DNA of 38,206 nucleotides. Origin: Candidatus Neomarinimicrobiota bacterium (GTDB taxonomy: Bacteria > Fidelibacterota > Marinisomatia > Marinisomatales > S15-B10). The stretch spans positions 1 to 38,206 of the forward strand of contig DTTI01000030.1 of assembly GCA_012964825.1 (NCBI GenBank), in the 5' to 3' direction. Under the pieces are notes generated by a model that worked only from the letters and a program-made list of their open reading frames with translations, had not been told where the DNA came from and searched no databases. Positions 8,246 to 22,476 of the stretch are shown here, one piece after another (the stretch's first letter is position 1; each line of letters opens with the position of its first letter). The translations under genes and the position numbers were made by a program.

Positions 8246-9748
8246 ATGTACCTCATTGATCAAGCCGAAAATTTTGGTCATCAGGTTGCGCTTGAATGCG
8301 ATGAACGCTCTATTAACTACGGTCCGCTATTGGATCAAGCTCAATCTCTGGCGGCTGATTTAATAAAAGACCAAGATGATCTCGAAAGTGCGCGGATTGT
8401 TTCCCTGCTTTCACCTTCAATTGATTACGTAGTGCTTCAATGGGCTGTTTGGCTAGCTGGAGGAGTATTTGTCCCTTTAACAGCAAAATCCTCTGATGAA
8501 GAACTAGGTTTCCTTTTTGACGATATTGAACCCACCATAATTGTAGTTGATGAGGAAGAAAAGGACAGATTGTCGGCCATAAGTAAAAGGTATGAAATAA
8601 AATCGGTAAATGACTTTAACATAGTATCACAAAATAAATTGCCCTCTGTTGATTCTCACCGGCCTTGTATGTTGCTTTATACCTCAGGAACAACAGGAAA
8701 ACCTAAGGGTGTTGTGGTTACTCATTCAAATTTGGAGGCGCAAATAAAAAGTCTTCAAGAAGCGTGGGGATGGTCTCAAAAAGACAAAACAGTCTTGACA
8801 CTTCCCCTCTATCATGTCCACGGGAATGTAAACATTCTCTGTTGTGCCCTCGCATCAGGCTCGAACTGCAAAATCCATTCCCGATTTGATCCGGAAGCGG
8901 TCTGGAACGAATTCAGGAACGGAGATTTAACACTGTTCATGGCCGTTCCGACCATTTACGCAAAGTTGATGGAATGGTATGATAACGTTAATTCAAATGA
9001 ACAAATGAAACTTTCCAAAGCCGTTTCAAATCTCAGGCTGACTGTATCAGGATCAGCTCCCTTATCTACTTCACTCTTTGAACGTTGGCATGAGATTTCA
9101 GGTCATACAATGCTTGAAAGATATGGCATGACGGAAACCGGCATGATCCTTTCCAACCCTCTGAATGGGGCACGTCGAAAGGGGGCGGTTGGTCAACCTC
9201 TTCCTGGCGTGACTGTGAAACTTGTTGATGACAAGCTTCAGGAAGTTGCTACGGGTGAATCCGGTGAAGTATTGGTTAAAGGGAAAAATGTGTTCTCAGA
9301 ATACTGGAAACGATCCAAAGAAACTGACGCATCTTTCCACCAGGGCTGGTTTCGGACAGGCGACCTGGCAGTAAATGAGGATGGTGACTACCGACTTTTA
9401 GGAAGATTGAGTCAGGATATTATCAAAACCGGTGGGCATAAAGTGTCCGCACTGGAGATTGAAGAGGTCTTGAGAGAACATCCTGACATAAAAGACGCAT
9501 CGGTCGTATCCATCCACGATGATATGTGGGGAGAGATCGTCTGTGCCGCAGTGACCCCACAATCTGATTTACTTTCTGATAAACGTCTTCTTGAATGGAG
9601 TAAAGGCTATTTTATCAGTCATAAACGTCCAAGAAGAGTCTTAATCATGGAAAACTTCCCCAGGAATAGCCTCGGGAAGGTTATAAAAAGTGAGCTCAGA
9701 AAAAAGTTCGAAAGGTCTTCTGAAATGGAATCAAAGGACGATACTTAA
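8246..9748 (+). CDS. AMP-forming acyl-CoA synthetase, malonyl/methylmalonyl-CoA synthetase-like
   Basis: A 500-residue ANL-superfamily ligase that adenylates a carboxylic acid and transfers it to CoA. The P-loop is [11 protein letters not shown] (residues 145-155). The adenine-site motif is [13 protein letters not shown], followed by [11 protein letters not shown]. The hinge region is [23 protein letters not shown]-terminal catalytic lysine lies in [11 protein letters not shown]. The GRxSxDIIKTGG and GMTETGM forms are close to MatB/ACSF3-type malonyl- or methylmalonyl-CoA synthetases, but the acid-binding pocket cannot be verified by eye and other short or branched acids are possible. The start is an ATG 11 bases after the symporter stop. 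The 3' end overlaps the convergent leuS gene by 18 bases. Confidence 0.88.
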
Positions 9749-17342: not shown

Positions 17343-18137
17343 ATGAAAAAACCAAATTTTGATTTAACAGATAAAGTTGCGATAGTTACGGGAGGATCCC
17401 GAGGAATCGGAAAGGCCATTGCAAATGGATTTTGTAATTCAGGGGCCACAGTTGTCATTGCTAGCCGAAAACAGGACGGGTTAGATAAAGCAGCCGAGGA
17501 GATCAATAGTGAAAGTGGAAAAGTTGTTCCCATCGCTGCCCATACGGGGGACAGAGATGCTGTGGAAAATCTCATCCAGAAAACGTTAGATTCATGTGGC
17601 GGAATTGATATTGTTGTTAATAATGCTGCCACAAACCCGCAGTTTGGTCCACTCCTTCAATCTGAGGAAAGTCAGTGGGATAAAGTTTGGGAAGTGAATG
17701 TCAAAGGATATTTTCGATTAGCAAAAGCATCATTTTCACACATGAAGAAACGTGGCGGCGGGAAAATAATCAATGTTTCTTCAATAGCCGCAAAACTACC
17801 TCTTATAGGAATGGGAGTCTACTCTATCAGTAAAGCTGCAGTTGTAATGTTGACAAAAATGTTGGCTCAAGAATTGGCACCTGATAATATTCAGGTTAAT
17901 GCCATTGCTCCGGGATTTATCAAGACTCAATTCAGTTCGGGGCTCTGGAAAAATGAAAAAGTTCACGATGAAATCCTCAAAAGCATCCCTCAAAGAAGGT
18001 TGGCAGAACCTGAAGAAATTGCCGGTATAGCTCTCTATCTTGCCTCAGATGCTTCTTCATTTACCACAGGCGAAACCATGACTGTTGATGGTGGGCAAAC
18101 CCTGGGTCCCCCCTTCAATCCAGTAAAATATTATTAA
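17343..18137 (+). CDS. Short-chain dehydrogenase/reductase
   Basis: A 264-residue classical SDR that oxidises or reduces an alcohol/ketone with NAD(P)(H). It has the cofactor motif TGGSRGIG (residues 16-23), NNAA (about 93-96) and the catalytic Ser-Tyr-Lys set (Ser146/147, Tyr160, Lys164 in YSISK). The C-terminus [14 protein letters not shown] is typical of 3-oxoacyl reductase/3-hydroxyacyl dehydrogenase-like members. The ATG follows an AGAGAGAGGTAG purine-rich ribosome site. It begins a three-gene operon and the next gene starts two bases later. With the dehydrogenase and kinase behind it, reduction of a 4-oxoacyl-CoA (as LvaD does in levulinate catabolism) is a plausible role, but this is inferred from context. 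Confidence 0.9.
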
Positions 18138-18138
18138 G

Positions 18139-19311
18139 TTGACAATAAATAACAAAATAAGTGCATTTGTCGAGTCTGAAGTGATACCTCTTGAATCTTT
18201 ATTGCTTTCCAATGAATTCTCGAAACTCATGAAACATCTTAAAAATTTGAGGAAAAAGGTAAAAAAGAAAGGCTGGTGGACGCCCTATCTACCGAAAAAT
18301 GATGGTGGTATGGATCTTTCATTAACACAATTTGCCGAAATTAGTGAAATTCTTGGCAAATCACCTTTGGGTCATTATGTATTCAATTGTCAAGCTCCTG
18401 ATATTGGGAATATTGAACTCCTTCGAGGACACGGTTCACCAGATCAGAAAAGTACCTTCCTTGAGCCACTCATTGCAGGAAACATTCGAAGTTGTTTCGC
18501 CATGACAGAACCAGATAAACCTGGATCAAATCCTACGTGGATGGATACTACATCAAATTTGGATGGGAACGAATACATCATCAATGGACGAAAGTGGTTC
18601 ACTTCGGCCGCTGACGGAGCCAGTTTTTGTATTGTCATGGCAGTAACAGATTCACAAAGTAAAGACAAATATGGTCGAGCAAGTATGTTCATTGTCAGTA
18701 GTGATAATCCTGGATATGAAATCGTCAGGAATATCTCAGTAATGGGAGATACTGGTGAAGGGTATTTTAGCCATGCGGAAGTGGTTTTTCAGGATTGCCG
18801 CGTCCCGACTTCATCCCTGTTGGGCAATGTTGGTTCCGGATTTACACTGGCTCAGGAACGTTTAGGCCCTGGAAGGATTCACCACTGCATGCGGTGGATT
18901 GGTATATGCGAAAGGGCCTTCGATCTTATGTGTCGACGCGCATCTTCTCGTGAATTGTCTCCTGGCCATGCATTGTCAAACGAAGGGGTAATTCACAACT
19001 GGATTTCAGAATCTAGGGCTGAAATAAATGCTGCGCGACTTTTGGTACTGGATTGTGCCAGACAAATAGATGAAAAAGGACCCTATGCGGCCAGAAGGGA
19101 TGTCTCTATCATTAAGTTCTATGTGGCTGATGTCCTTACAAAAATTCTGGATAGAGCTATTCAAACGCACGGTGCTCTCGGAATTACCGATGATACCCCC
19201 CTCTCCTTCTGGTATCGTCATGAGCGAGGGGCTAGGATTTATGATGGTGCTGATGAGGTTCATAAACGGTCAGTGGCAAAACAGATTCTTAAACAATATA
19301 CTGATGGATAA
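18139..19311 (+). CDS. Acyl-CoA dehydrogenase, ACAD10/11-like
   Basis: A 390-residue flavin-dependent acyl-CoA dehydrogenase. It has the FAD/substrate region CFAMTEPDKPGSNP and the INGRKWFTSAADGA segment. RLGPGRIHHCMRWIG, then THGALGI and the C-terminal IYDGADEVHKRSVAKQIL, are the form seen in the ACAD10/ACAD11 branch rather than in classic straight-chain dehydrogenases. It starts at TTG, one base after the SDR stop, and overlaps the kinase gene by 8 bases. In ACAD10/11 the kinase and dehydrogenase are fused in one chain and together turn 4-hydroxyacyl-CoA into an enoyl-CoA through a 4-phospho intermediate. Separate neighbouring genes here suggest the same chemistry (inference). Confidence 0.88.
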   Translation: MTINNKISAFVESEVIPLESLLLSNEFSKLMKHLKNLRKKVKKKGWWTPYLPKNDGGMDLSLTQFAEISEILGKSPLGHYVFNCQAPDIGNIELLRGHGSPDQKSTFLEPLIAGNIRSCFAMTEPDKPGSNPTWMDTTSNLDGNEYIINGRKWFTSAADGASFCIVMAVTDSQSKDKYGRASMFIVSSDNPGYEIVRNISVMGDTGEGYFSHAEVVFQDCRVPTSSLLGNVGSGFTLAQERLGPGRIHHCMRWIGICERAFDLMCRRASSRELSPGHALSNEGVIHNWISESRAEINAARLLVLDCARQIDEKGPYAARRDVSIIKFYVADVLTKILDRAIQTHGALGITDDTPLSFWYRHERGARIYDGADEVHKRSVAKQILKQYTDG

Positions 19312-20353
19312 TGATACCATCTCCGTTCGCCCTGATGAACGGTTTGATGAATCGTGTCTTGCTGAATATTTGCGGGGAAAACTCGAAGGCACTGAAAAAG
19401 CACTTACAGTAAGGCAATTTGGCGGTGGTGCTGCCAATCTAACCTATCTCTTAGACTACGGAGCCTGTAAATATGTTTTAAGACGGCCTCCTCTTGGACC
19501 TGTGGCACCATCCTCGCATGACATGGACCGAGAGTTTAAGGTTCTTTCAGTTCTACATGAGGCGTTCCCATACGCACCACAGGCGTTTCTGTTATGTGCT
19601 GATCCAGATGTTATCGGTGCACCTTTTTTCATCATGGATCGACGGCGGGGTATTGTGATAAGGAGAAACTTGCCAAAAGAATTTTCCAGCATGCCGGAAG
19701 CTCCTCGCTATATGAGTAAGGCCTTGATAGACGTACTCGCAAAATTTCACAAAGTTGACTATAATGTTTTAGGATTAAGTGAACTGGGAAAACCGGAAGG
19801 TTTCATCTCCCGCCAAGTGAATGGTTGGTACACTCGATGGGAAAAGGCAAAACACCAGGAAATGCCAGAGATGGATGAGATTTACGCCTGGCTTGAGAAT
19901 AACCTTCCAGATTCAACACATTATTCTCTTGTTCACAATGATTACAAACTGGACAATATTATGTTTTCCAAAAACAGTCCTAAAGAGGTGGTAGCAGTTT
20001 TTGATTGGGATATGTGTACACTAGGTGATCCATTAAGTGATCTCGGTTCATTGTTGAGTTATTGGAGTGAACCGTCTGACCCAGAATTTTTAAGGAAAGC
20101 GGCAATGATGCCTACGGAAAATGGATTCTTATTCCGAAATGAACTGTTGGAACGTTATTCAGAAATAATCGGTCGTGATATTTCAGCTATAAAATTTTAT
20201 CATGTTCTTGGCCTTTTTCGTGTAGTAGGGATTGTGGCCCAGATATATATCAGGTATGTAAGAGGTCAAACTGAAGACAAGCGTTTTGCTATATTTGGTG
20301 ATATGATACCCTTCCTGACTCAGTCAGCGCTAAATCTTATTCAGGAGCCCTGA
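19304..20353 (+). CDS. APH-family kinase, LvaA / ACAD10/11 N-domain-like
   Basis: A 349-residue aminoglycoside-phosphotransferase-fold kinase. It has the glycine-rich GGGAANLTYLL (about residue 40), the lysine-equivalent region YVLRRPPLG, the catalytic loop HNDYKLDN (211-218) and the metal-binding DWD (234-236) in FDWDMCTLGDPLSDLG. RRPPLGPVAPSSHDMDREFKVL is characteristic of the ACAD10/11 N-terminal domain rather than of antibiotic-resistance enzymes. I chose the ATG at 19304, which gives an 8-base overlap with the dehydrogenase. A longer in-frame start at 19070 would add residues that only mirror the dehydrogenase gene. The likely role is phosphorylation of a 4-hydroxyacyl-CoA. The 3' end overlaps the convergent SMP-30-like gene by 17 bases. 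Confidence 0.88.
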   Translation: MDNDTISVRPDERFDESCLAEYLRGKLEGTEKALTVRQFGGGAANLTYLLDYGACKYVLRRPPLGPVAPSSHDMDREFKVLSVLHEAFPYAPQAFLLCADPDVIGAPFFIMDRRRGIVIRRNLPKEFSSMPEAPRYMSKALIDVLAKFHKVDYNVLGLSELGKPEGFISRQVNGWYTRWEKAKHQEMPEMDEIYAWLENNLPDSTHYSLVHNDYKLDNIMFSKNSPKEVVAVFDWDMCTLGDPLSDLGSLLSYWSEPSDPEFLRKAAMMPTENGFLFRNELLERYSEIIGRDISAIKFYHVLGLFRVVGIVAQIYIRYVRGQTEDKRFAIFGDMIPFLTQSALNLIQEP

Positions 20354-21404
20354 TTCTGGCAAAACCGGAATAAGTAAGGCTCCCAAGGTAGAGCATACCG
20401 TCATGCTCTTCCACACTGGTTATGGGTGAAAATGAATCAGGTGAAGGGTCCTGGAGATTATGAACGACATTCCCTTCTCCATCAATTCCCAAAACAAAGC
20501 CATATCTTTGTGGGGCAGGTTGAATGGCTTCTGGCAACCGAAGAATCATCTTCCTCATAATAGGGTTATCAGAAAGATCGTCAATAATGGTCTGCCGTCT
20601 TGATGGTAGTGCAATCCAATAGATTCCACGACCATTAGAAGAAATTCCATCAGGGAACCCGGGAAGTCCATCCATGAGAATCTCACTCTTACCTTTCATG
20701 TTTCCTTTAATCCACACTTTTCTCACCCTGTATTCACTTGTTTCATTTACCAAAACAAAATCACCTTCCGGGCTGACAGCAACGCCATTGGCAAAATACA
20801 TACTGTCTTGTACCAGATAAGTCCTTTTACTTTGGGGCTCATAAGCAAATAGACCACCATAGGGGCGGTGATCAACAATATCATGTCTGTAGTCAGTAAT
20901 ACCAGTTTTTGAAGATGCATCTGAAAAATAGATTGTTCCATCTGGAGAAATATCCAGATCGTCGGCAAACCCGAACTTGACATCATTGGTACCTGTTGTT
21001 AAGACGGTGATTTTTCCTACAGGATCAATGGAGAGTAGTCCCTGGAGTGCGTCAGCAACTATGAGATTCCCATATTTATCAAACTCTAGACCTAAAGGTC
21101 GGCCGCCAGTGTGGGCGAAGCGCTCTCCTCCACTGCCGTCAGGTTTATACCGGATTATTTCACCTTCTTCATAACCGGTGTATATATTACCGAAAGCATC
21201 TACATCGACATCTTCTGGCCCAATACCATCACCCAAACCAAATCTTTCAACGTTTACTAAATAGTTATTAGGGGTGTAATCACCTTCCAAGGCAGGAGAA
21301 TGAGGAGGTTCCCAAATGACAGGATCTACGGGAACAGGCCAGAAAAAAAGATAAAGAACCATCGAAAGAAAAAGGAAAAGTAATATCTCACGAATTTTAT
21401 TCAT
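20337..21404 (-). CDS. SMP-30/strictosidine-synthase-like six-bladed propeller, membrane-anchored
   Basis: A 355-residue protein with an N-terminal uncleaved-type hydrophobic anchor (ILLFLFLSMVLYLFF, about residues 7-21) and then a six-bladed beta-propeller facing the periplasm. GPEDVDVDAFGNIYTG, GRPLGLEFDKYGNLIVAD, YFANGVAVSPEGDFVLV and LPGFPDGISSNGRGIYWIAL match the strictosidine synthase-like / APMAP branch of the SMP-30/gluconolactonase family. Members include lactonases and arylesterases, but plain homologues often have unknown substrates. It overlaps the upstream dehydrogenase-like gene by 8 bases and its tail overlaps the convergent kinase gene by 17 bases. Confidence 0.85.
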   Translation of the reverse strand: MNKIREILLFLFLSMVLYLFFWPVPVDPVIWEPPHSPALEGDYTPNNYLVNVERFGLGDGIGPEDVDVDAFGNIYTGYEEGEIIRYKPDGSGGERFAHTGGRPLGLEFDKYGNLIVADALQGLLSIDPVGKITVLTTGTNDVKFGFADDLDISPDGTIYFSDASSKTGITDYRHDIVDHRPYGGLFAYEPQSKRTYLVQDSMYFANGVAVSPEGDFVLVNETSEYRVRKVWIKGNMKGKSEILMDGLPGFPDGISSNGRGIYWIALPSRRQTIIDDLSDNPIMRKMILRLPEAIQPAPQRYGFVLGIDGEGNVVHNLQDPSPDSFSPITSVEEHDGMLYLGSLTYSGFARIRAPE

Positions 21405-22476
21405 GTTCTTCTTCTTTGAATCTTTCGAATTGGATACCGGTGTAACCTGGAAGTTTTTCCAGGATTGAGGTGCCTGCTAACATTGCAGGTGTGTAATAAC
21501 CTCCATCAACCCTGTTTGAATTAAGGAAAGAAACAATTTCAACGGCCCCTACAGCCGTAACATCATATCCGTTCCCAGTATCGAAACGACCAACAACAGA
21601 ATCCCCAGAAGGATTCATTAGCTCTCCCCAGATGTTCATTTTTGAATTTTTCCTTTCTTCCTCGGATTGACCTTTTATATTTTTTTCGATTCTACGTTTA
21701 AGAAAATTTTGAACCATAGCTGGCTTCATAATTTTTGCATATTTACGTCTTTTTCTTAGACGCTCAATTCCTTTTTCAGACATAGGGAGGTACACCTGAA
21801 TATTGGGGATGCCTGTGCTGAAATAAGCAGTTGATACATCTCCCCATGAAATGGATACAGTATTTCTAGGCCCAGAACCAAAATCGATTTCTCTAGTTGC
21901 ATAGGCTAAAGGAACAGAAAGAAGCTTCCCATTTTTTCGTATCCAGCCTCCTTTGGATGCACCTTCCACAGCTGTCTTAGCTGTTCCGGGACTTAATTTG
22001 CTTGCAACAGGCTGGAATGCTAAAGAAAGATCCGTGCCGGATGGAAGCTCCCTTTGTAACATTACAGCGAGACAGTCTGTCGGTACTACATCAAAACCAA
22101 CACCCGGGCAAATAACCACACTTGAAGCCTTTGCCTCTCTATTTTTAGAATGGGCATATTCGAAAACATCTATTTCTCCGGTAATGTCAATATAGTGGGT
22201 CGAGGTATGAAGACAGGCTGATATCATCATTTCAGCGGTAGATGAGAAAGGACCAGCACAGTTGAGGAGAATATCTATATCAGAAATTTGCTCAGAAACA
22301 GAGTCAAATGATGTAAGGTCAAAGATACGACTATCCAAACCATGTTCTGAGGAAAGTTGATCTATTTGATCACGATTTCTCCCAGCAATAATTGGTTTCA
22401 TTCCCCGTTCAGAAACCACCTTCAAGATAATCCGCGCCGAATATCCGTTAGCACCGTAAATCATCCAGGGTTTCAT
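21397..22476 (-). CDS. Saccharopine-dehydrogenase-like NAD(P)-binding protein
   Basis: A 359-residue protein with an N-terminal Rossmann fold, MIYGANGYSARIILKVV, followed by PIIAGRNRDQ. This is the pattern of the saccharopine dehydrogenase / trans-acting enoyl reductase family. DILLNCAGPFSS near residue 90, then YIDITGE and CPGVGFDVVPTDCLA, support it. No membrane anchor is obvious. Bacterial members are mostly uncharacterised and true lysine-pathway activity is unlikely in this context. It overlaps the SMP-30-like gene by 8 bases and follows the TPR lipoprotein gene by 13 bases, so all three are probably cotranscribed. Confidence 0.8.
   Translation of the reverse strand: MKPWMIYGANGYSARIILKVVSERGMKPIIAGRNRDQIDQLSSEHGLDSRIFDLTSFDSVSEQISDIDILLNCAGPFSSTAEMMISACLHTSTHYIDITGEIDVFEYAHSKNREAKASSVVICPGVGFDVVPTDCLAVMLQRELPSGTDLSLAFQPVASKLSPGTAKTAVEGASKGGWIRKNGKLLSVPLAYATREIDFGSGPRNTVSISWGDVSTAYFSTGIPNIQVYLPMSEKGIERLRKRRKYAKIMKPAMVQNFLKRRIEKNIKGQSEEERKNSKMNIWGELMNPSGDSVVGRFDTGNGYDVTAVGAVEIVSFLNSNRVDGGYYTPAMLAGTSILEKLPGYTGIQFERFKEEEHE

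What the first reader, a model, noticed from the sequence alone, without database searches (positions are those of the whole stretch)
17343..20353. Split ACAD10/11-like or Lva-like operon for 4-hydroxyacyl-CoA breakdown
SDR, ACAD10/11-type dehydrogenase and APH-fold kinase are packed with a one-base gap and an 8-base overlap. In Pseudomonas levulinate catabolism (LvaA, LvaC, LvaD) and in mammalian ACAD10/ACAD11, a kinase phosphorylates the 4-hydroxyl of an acyl-CoA and the dehydrogenase converts the phospho form to an enoyl-CoA. The SDR could make the 4-hydroxy compound from a 4-oxo acid. No LvaB-like small subunit is present, and the CoA ligase may be the one at 8246. In this kind of organism the module may handle hydroxylated or oxidised lipids.
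Basis: partly seen in the sequence, partly recalled or inferred. Interest (0 to 1): 0.6.

Follow-up and report, generated by a model that had tools for sequence, protein, structure and literature searches.

The report
Bacterial 4-hydroxy fatty acid salvage operon
Three tightly packed bacterial genes encode split versions of the mammalian ACAD10/11 enzyme (a kinase plus a phosphate-removing dehydrogenase) together with a reductase of the animal DHRS4 / plant IBR1 type; they very probably let the cell burn 4-hydroxylated fatty acids, and genome comparisons here show that the reductase travels with the pair.

Summary
In detail: SDR (17343-18137), ACAD (18139-19311) and APH-fold kinase (19304-20353), with a 1-nt gap and an 8-nt overlap. 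The pair is a split ACAD10/11-type module. The ACAD scores far better against ACAD11 (E 2e-81) than against conventional ACADs (3e-41). It keeps the phosphate-binding R626/H634/R637 and catalytic D753; the kinase keeps D220, N225 and R176. The kinase is nearest to bacterial 9o56 and the ACAD11 kinase, and only distantly related to antibiotic kinases.
It is not an Lva operon: no LvaB at the locus and no adjacent CoA ligase. The genome has at least six CoA ligases and two FadB-like proteins, so naming the ligase at 8246 is arbitrary.
New here: the cassette is absent as a unit from the same slot in three relatives. The SDR lies in a clade that includes animal DHRS4, and it co-occurs with the ACAD in two unrelated groups (both/SDR-only/ACAD-only: 24/2/12 of 245 genomes; 48/5/7 of 194), mostly unlinked in the second. 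Plant IBR1/IBR3 is the matching genetic pair. The SDR is probably an NADPH 4-oxoacyl reductase or epimerising partner, but its substrate is untested. A known kind of system; the SDR link is the part worth following.

The parts
17343..18137 (+). SDR oxidoreductase of the DHRS4 / PRK07035 group (264 aa); TGxxxGIG cofactor site, YxxxK catalytic pair, and an SRKQ motif after beta-2 shared with NADPH-dependent DHRS4
18139..19311 (+). ACAD10/11-type (LvaC-like) acyl-CoA dehydrogenase, 390 aa, TTG start; [quoted passage not shown]
18859..18894 (+). motif RLGPGRIHHCMR: R241, H249 and R252 equal ACAD11 R626, H634 and R637, the three phosphate-binding residues absent from conventional ACADs
19243..19245 (+). 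codon of D369, equivalent of the catalytic Asp D753 of ACAD11 (Glu in conventional ACADs)
19304..20353 (+). APH-fold kinase of the ACAD10/11 / LvaA type (349 aa); predicted 4-hydroxyacyl-CoA 4-kinase; overlaps the ACAD by 8 nt
19934..19957 (+). kinase catalytic loop HNDYKLDN (first Asp = ACAD11 D220, last Asn = N225)

Best explanation
A three-gene operon for entry of 4-hydroxylated (and probably 4-oxo) acyl-CoAs into beta-oxidation. The kinase phosphorylates the 4-hydroxyl of an acyl-CoA. The ACAD10/11-type dehydrogenase, using FAD that is reduced and re-oxidised within one turnover, eliminates the phosphate to give a trans-2-enoyl-CoA. The genome's FadB-like enzymes then complete beta-oxidation. 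The SDR is an NADPH-linked carbonyl reductase that makes the kinase-accepted 4-hydroxy epimer from the 4-oxo compound (or interconverts the two epimers through it). Shown here: family and active-site residues of kinase and ACAD, conservation of the set, presence/absence as a unit, SDR co-occurrence. Inferred: the substrate position, transferred from the ACAD10/11 and Lva biochemistry, and the SDR step.
For: ACAD: best PDB matches are ACAD11 (2e-81) and 4hr3 (5e-76), against 3e-41 for the best conventional ACAD. R626, H634, R637 and D753 of ACAD11 (phosphate site and base; PMC12440821) are all conserved in the window protein and invariant in 12 sequences; butyryl-CoA dehydrogenase 5ol2 has T, I, Q and E there. 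Kinase: 9o56 1e-98, ACAD11 kinase 1e-57, against 5e-4 for APH(2''); D220, N225, R176 and the Arg before the alphaC Glu are conserved. Bacterial split orthologues can replace either ACAD10 domain in vitro (PMC11342911). All 15 related loci read that have the ACAD carry the kinase next to it. Sister species G002 and f8 genomes G046 and G052 have the flanking genes contiguous with no cassette. SDR and ACAD co-occur: 24 both, 2 SDR only, 12 ACAD only, 207 neither in the window's phylum; 48/5/7/134 in the order of Aquiflexum, with only 14 of 48 adjacent. The own genome has two FadB-like 3HCDH+ECH proteins.
Against: No substrate was tested by anyone for these proteins. Eight f8 genomes keep the ACAD (with the kinase, in those read) without the SDR, so the SDR is not strictly required. 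No dedicated CoA ligase, transporter or regulator is linked, so the physiological acid is unknown. Fisher p-values overstate the link because relatives are not independent. The kinase lies in a bacterial subclade apart from the ACAD11 kinase.
Confidence: 0.75

Rival explanations
1. Same kinase/ACAD chemistry, but the SDR acts downstream as a 3-hydroxyacyl-CoA dehydrogenase on the product after hydration (the role guessed for plant IBR1).
For: The plant literature assigns IBR1 the dehydrogenase step after IBR3 and IBR10. SDRs can be 3-hydroxyacyl-CoA dehydrogenases (general knowledge).
Against: The own genome already has two FadB-like 3HCDH proteins. The cofactor loop (SRKQ) matches NADPH-dependent DHRS4, a reductase. 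A general beta-oxidation step would not explain co-occurrence with this one ACAD type.
Confidence: 0.25
2. A true Lva-type operon dedicated to levulinate / 4-hydroxyvalerate.
For: The same three enzyme types (kinase, ACAD, SDR) as LvaA, LvaC and LvaD.
Against: No LvaB between or beside the genes, no adjacent CoA ligase, a different gene order (SDR-ACAD-kinase), and flanks that are also present without the cassette. Many CoA ligases are unlinked.
Confidence: 0.08
3. The ACAD is an ordinary saturated acyl-CoA dehydrogenase and the kinase is an unrelated small-molecule kinase (antibiotic, choline or sugar).
For: General Pfam names only; NCBIfam has no specific model above cut-off for either protein.
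Against: Catalytic Asp and R/H/R phosphate site; kinase ranking; kinase/ACAD pairing in all relatives read; ACAD10/11 have no activity on saturated acyl-CoAs in the published assay.
Confidence: 0.04
4. The kinase/ACAD pair handles a hydroxyacyl-CoA with the hydroxyl elsewhere (for example C5), or a non-fatty acyl such as an aryl-butyryl-CoA like the plant IBA pathway.
For: The IBR1/IBR3 mutants affect indole-3-butyrate conversion, which has no 4-hydroxyl. Substrates of the bacterial kinase subclade around 9o56 are unknown to me.
Against: The phosphate site in ACAD11 is modelled around a 4-phospho group and the residues are identical.
Confidence: 0.12

Closest known systems
Mammalian ACAD11 / ACAD10 (bifunctional 4-hydroxyacyl-CoA kinase + phosphate-eliminating ACAD)
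   Same: Both catalytic domains, all tested diagnostic residues, paired in one transcription unit
   Different: Two separate polypeptides in reversed order (ACAD then kinase); no HAD domain; an SDR gene is part of the unit
Pseudomonas putida lva operon (LvaA, LvaB, LvaC, LvaD, LvaE)
   Same: Kinase, ACAD and SDR classes and the predicted chemistry
   Different: No LvaB, no adjacent ligase or regulator, different order; relationship of this SDR to LvaD untested (no LvaD sequence at hand)
Burkholderia pseudomallei LvaA/LvaC orthologues shown to replace ACAD10 domains (PMC11342911)
   Same: Split bacterial ACAD10-type kinase and ACAD
   Different: Context and identity to the window proteins not tested
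Animal DHRS4 and plant IBR1/SDRa (peroxisomal SDRs) with ACAD11 / IBR3
   Same: The SDR's nearest solved structures are DHRS4 (209 bits, next group 161); IBR1 groups with human DHRS4 (PMC10288848); IBR1 and IBR3 act in one pathway
   Different: DHRS4 sits on a sister branch and its best NCBIfam model differs (NF005559 against NF005446), so strict orthology is not shown; the IBR1 sequence was not compared
ACAD-SDR-kinase-histidine phosphatase operons of Deinococcus, Pseudoalteromonas, Ideonella, Rhodobacteraceae
   Same: ACAD10/11-type ACAD plus kinase plus an SDR in one operon
   Different: Other SDR subfamilies, and an added histidine phosphatase that is absent here

Membership tests
ACAD10/11-type (LvaC-like) dehydrogenase | Closer to ACAD11 than to any conventional ACAD | tested here: met
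   E 2e-81 against 3e-41
ACAD10/11-type (LvaC-like) dehydrogenase | Phosphate-site R626, H634, R637 (HCMR) and catalytic Asp D753 | tested here: met
   R241, H249, R252, D369; invariant in A1
[quoted passage not shown]
   needs an enzyme assay
ACAD10/11 / LvaA-type kinase | PKL/APH fold family with HxD...N catalytic loop, the acyl-CoA-contacting Arg (R176) and an Arg next to the alphaC Glu | tested here: met
   the paper numbers the second Arg 86, while in the printed chain it lies just before the Glu at chain position 84
ACAD10/11 / LvaA-type kinase | Groups with the ACAD10/11 and LvaA kinases rather than antibiotic or choline kinases | tested here: met
   9o56, ACAD11 and 3dxp rank first, APH(2'') last; tree. 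LvaA itself was not available
Lva operon | LvaB small subunit next to the kinase | tested here: not met
   No gene fits between or beside the three genes; not searched genome-wide
Lva operon | Linked CoA ligase (LvaE) | tested here: not met
   Nearest AMP-binding gene ends at 9748, 7.6 kb upstream
Lva operon | Levulinate or 4-hydroxyvalerate supports growth through these genes | not testable with these tools
   needs culture or heterologous expression
DHRS4/IBR1-type SDR | Nearest to DHRS4 among solved SDRs and in one supported clade with it | tested here: met
   (209 against 161 bits); clade 99/94 with limited outgroups
DHRS4/IBR1-type SDR | Same best family model as DHRS4 | tested here: inconclusive
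   window NF005446 then NF005559; DHRS4 NF005559 first

The most novel reading that the evidence does not exclude
A DHRS4/IBR1-type SDR is a third, ancient component of the ACAD10/11 (4-hydroxyacyl-CoA) pathway in bacteria, animals and plants. Animal DHRS4 would work with ACAD11 in the peroxisome, and plant IBR1 with IBR3, as 4-oxoacyl-CoA reductase or epimerising partner; this would give the orphan IBR1/IBR3 pair and DHRS4 a defined chemistry.
Probability: 0.4. Interest if true: 0.75.

Novelty: new member of a known kind. Interest (0 to 1): 0.5.

Why it matters
The operon itself is a further bacterial example of chemistry published in 2017-2025. What it adds is a concrete, cheap-to-test link: a DHRS4/IBR1-type reductase that is gained, lost and retained with the ACAD10/11 pair across two unrelated bacterial groups, even when the genes are not neighbours. 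Neither ACAD10/11 paper mentions DHRS4, IBR3 or an SDR, and the mechanism of plant IBR1 is stated to be unknown. If the link holds, it names the enzyme that feeds 4-oxo or wrong-handed 4-hydroxy acids into the pathway in animals and plants.

Tried and rejected
(1) gamma-Lactone hypothesis: the strictosidine-synthase-like/SMP-30 gene at 20337-21404 could have been a lactonase making 4-hydroxy acids. Rejected as part of the system: it, the saccharopine-dehydrogenase-like gene and the nitrilase are present and contiguous in relatives that lack the cassette, and SSL occurs in many ACAD-less genomes. (2) Ligase at 8246 as the dedicated partner: unsupported, one of many, generic acyl-CoA synthetase. 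(3) An LvaB search by clustering small ORFs next to kinases gave only spurious overlapping frames. (4) Rand et al. 2017 and Zolman et al. 2008 could not be read, and no LvaA/LvaC/LvaD or IBR1/IBR3 sequence was at hand, so those trees were not built. (5) The promoter/terminator scan gave no clear signal above shuffles. (7) The organism could not be named; relatives are unnamed and none of the 80 named loci is a close relative.

Full report
OBSERVATION. The three genes exist at the stated coordinates with the stated 1-nt gap and 8-nt overlap. Pfam assigns SDR, ACAD (N, M and C domains) and APH. The kinase runs from the ATG at 19304; its ORF extends upstream only mechanically. The ACAD starts with TTG.

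DEHYDROGENASE. In the PDB the best matches are mouse and human ACAD11 (2e-81, 4e-81) and 4hr3; conventional ACADs follow at 3e-41 or weaker. The 2025 structural paper on ACAD11 names R626, H634 and R637 as the 4-phosphate site, D753 as the base, R631 as general and H597 as accessory, and reports that non-conservative substitutions of R626, H634 and R637 were the most disruptive to ACAD activity (PMC12440821). All six positions are conserved in the window protein, while butyryl-CoA dehydrogenase has T, I, Q and E at the four specific positions (chain numbering is one lower than the paper's). The four specific positions are also invariant in an alignment of 12 bacterial sequences (R241, H249, R252, D369).

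KINASE. Best matches are 9o56 (1e-98), the ACAD11 kinase domain (1e-57) and 3dxp (4e-47); 3ats (1e-9) and APH(2'') (5e-4) are far behind. The catalytic Asp and Asn, the acyl-CoA-contacting R176 and the Arg beside the alphaC Glu are conserved. In a tree of 73 kinases the window protein lies in a bacterial clade with Chloroflexota and 9o56-like proteins, apart from the ACAD11 kinase; kinases of the small-genome family f15 of the same order group with Bacteroidota instead, so the module has at least two histories inside this order.

SDR. The nearest solved structures are three DHRS4 proteins (209, 208 and 185 bits); the next SDRs score 161. The SRKQ cofactor loop is shared with DHRS4, an NADPH-dependent enzyme by general knowledge (inference: NADPH, reductive direction). 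In two trees the ACAD-adjacent SDRs of several phyla, the unlinked ones and DHRS4 form a 99/94-99/95 clade, DHRS4 on a side branch with two actinobacterial sequences. Outgroups were limited, and the best NCBIfam model differs between DHRS4 and the bacterial proteins, so I claim kinship, not orthology.

GENOME CONTEXT. In families f1 and f8 of the same order the block nitrilase - [SDR-ACAD-kinase] - SSL - saccharopine-DH-like is conserved. In the same-genus G002, and in G046 and G052, the outer genes are contiguous and the bracketed cassette is missing. The cassette is therefore gained or lost as a unit, and its neighbours are not part of the function. L020 and L022 carry ACAD-kinase without the SDR. 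In f15 the operon is MaoC - histidine phosphatase - ACAD - kinase, with the SDR elsewhere in the genome.

CO-OCCURRENCE. Among 245 genomes of the phylum, 24 have both SDR and ACAD, 2 SDR only, 12 ACAD only and 207 neither. Four of the 12 ACAD-only genomes are incomplete f15 assemblies; eight are f8. As an independent test, 194 genomes from the order of Aquiflexum (Bacteroidota) were searched: 48 both, 5 SDR only, 7 ACAD only, 134 neither (Fisher p 5e-32). Only 14 of the 48 have the genes within 4 kb, so most co-occur unlinked (some may be contig breaks); unlinked neighbourhoods were read to confirm this. P-values ignore shared ancestry. ACAD-less genomes still showed other ACAD candidates, so the signal is not simply presence of beta-oxidation.

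WIDER OCCURRENCE. SDR-ACAD-kinase in this form is found in Cyclobacteriaceae, other Bacteroidota and Caldilineaceae. Deinococcus, Pseudoalteromonas, Ideonella, Rhodobacteraceae and Cupriavidus plasmids carry ACAD-kinase with SDRs, which in the cases compared belong to other subfamilies. A redox partner of SDR type is thus recruited repeatedly.

MECHANISM. By transfer from ACAD10/11 and Lva biochemistry: 4-hydroxyacyl-CoA + ATP to 4-phosphoacyl-CoA (kinase); FAD-mediated oxidation, phosphate elimination and re-reduction to 2-enoyl-CoA (ACAD); then FadB-like enzymes, two of which the genome encodes. The ACAD10 kinase prefers the R epimer, which gives an SDR working at C4 a clear job: making R-4-hydroxy from 4-oxo, or epimerising S through 4-oxo. 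This last step is inference.

KNOWN OR NEW. The kinase-ACAD pair is a new member of a known kind. It fails the Lva operon test (no LvaB, no linked ligase). What I did not find in the papers held is the SDR link. Plant IBR1 (which groups with DHRS4, mechanism stated as unknown) and IBR3 (ACAD-like; from my own knowledge it also carries an APH kinase domain) act in one peroxisomal pathway, and ACAD11 and DHRS4 both carry peroxisomal targeting signals. The bacterial operon pairs the same two types.

Noticed in passing
L037:8044-8748, L124:6040-6732, L127:6043-6756, L128:6040-6699, L036:7655-8359, L029:7578-8297: A histidine phosphatase (His_Phos_1) recurs directly beside ACAD10/11-type ACAD/kinase genes in unrelated bacteria; it may be a functional counterpart of the HAD domain of mammalian ACAD10.
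   Followed up: partly
window:16403-17227, 20337-21404, 21397-22476: Nitrilase, strictosidine-synthase-like and saccharopine-dehydrogenase-like genes form a block conserved with or without the cassette between them.
   Followed up: partly
L034:7527-10586 (own genome, contig C6): The only other APH-domain protein of the genome is a 1019-aa ORF that by eye looks like APH kinase + M23-like + class III aminotransferase, resembling a hydroxylysine kinase / phospho-lyase fusion: another phosphorylate-then-eliminate pair.
   Followed up: no
L025-L033 (family f15, genomes of 0.7-1.0 Mb): Very small genomes keep a MaoC - histidine phosphatase - ACAD - kinase operon whose kinase groups with Bacteroidota, plus a distant SDR next to a second SDR; the pathway survives in small genomes.
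   Followed up: partly
L028:390-1513: The ACAD of G007 is split into two reading frames, either a frameshift or an assembly error.
   Followed up: no
L036:4559-5130: A HicAB toxin-antitoxin pair sits inside the ACAD/SDR/kinase operon on a Deinococcus plasmid.
   Followed up: no
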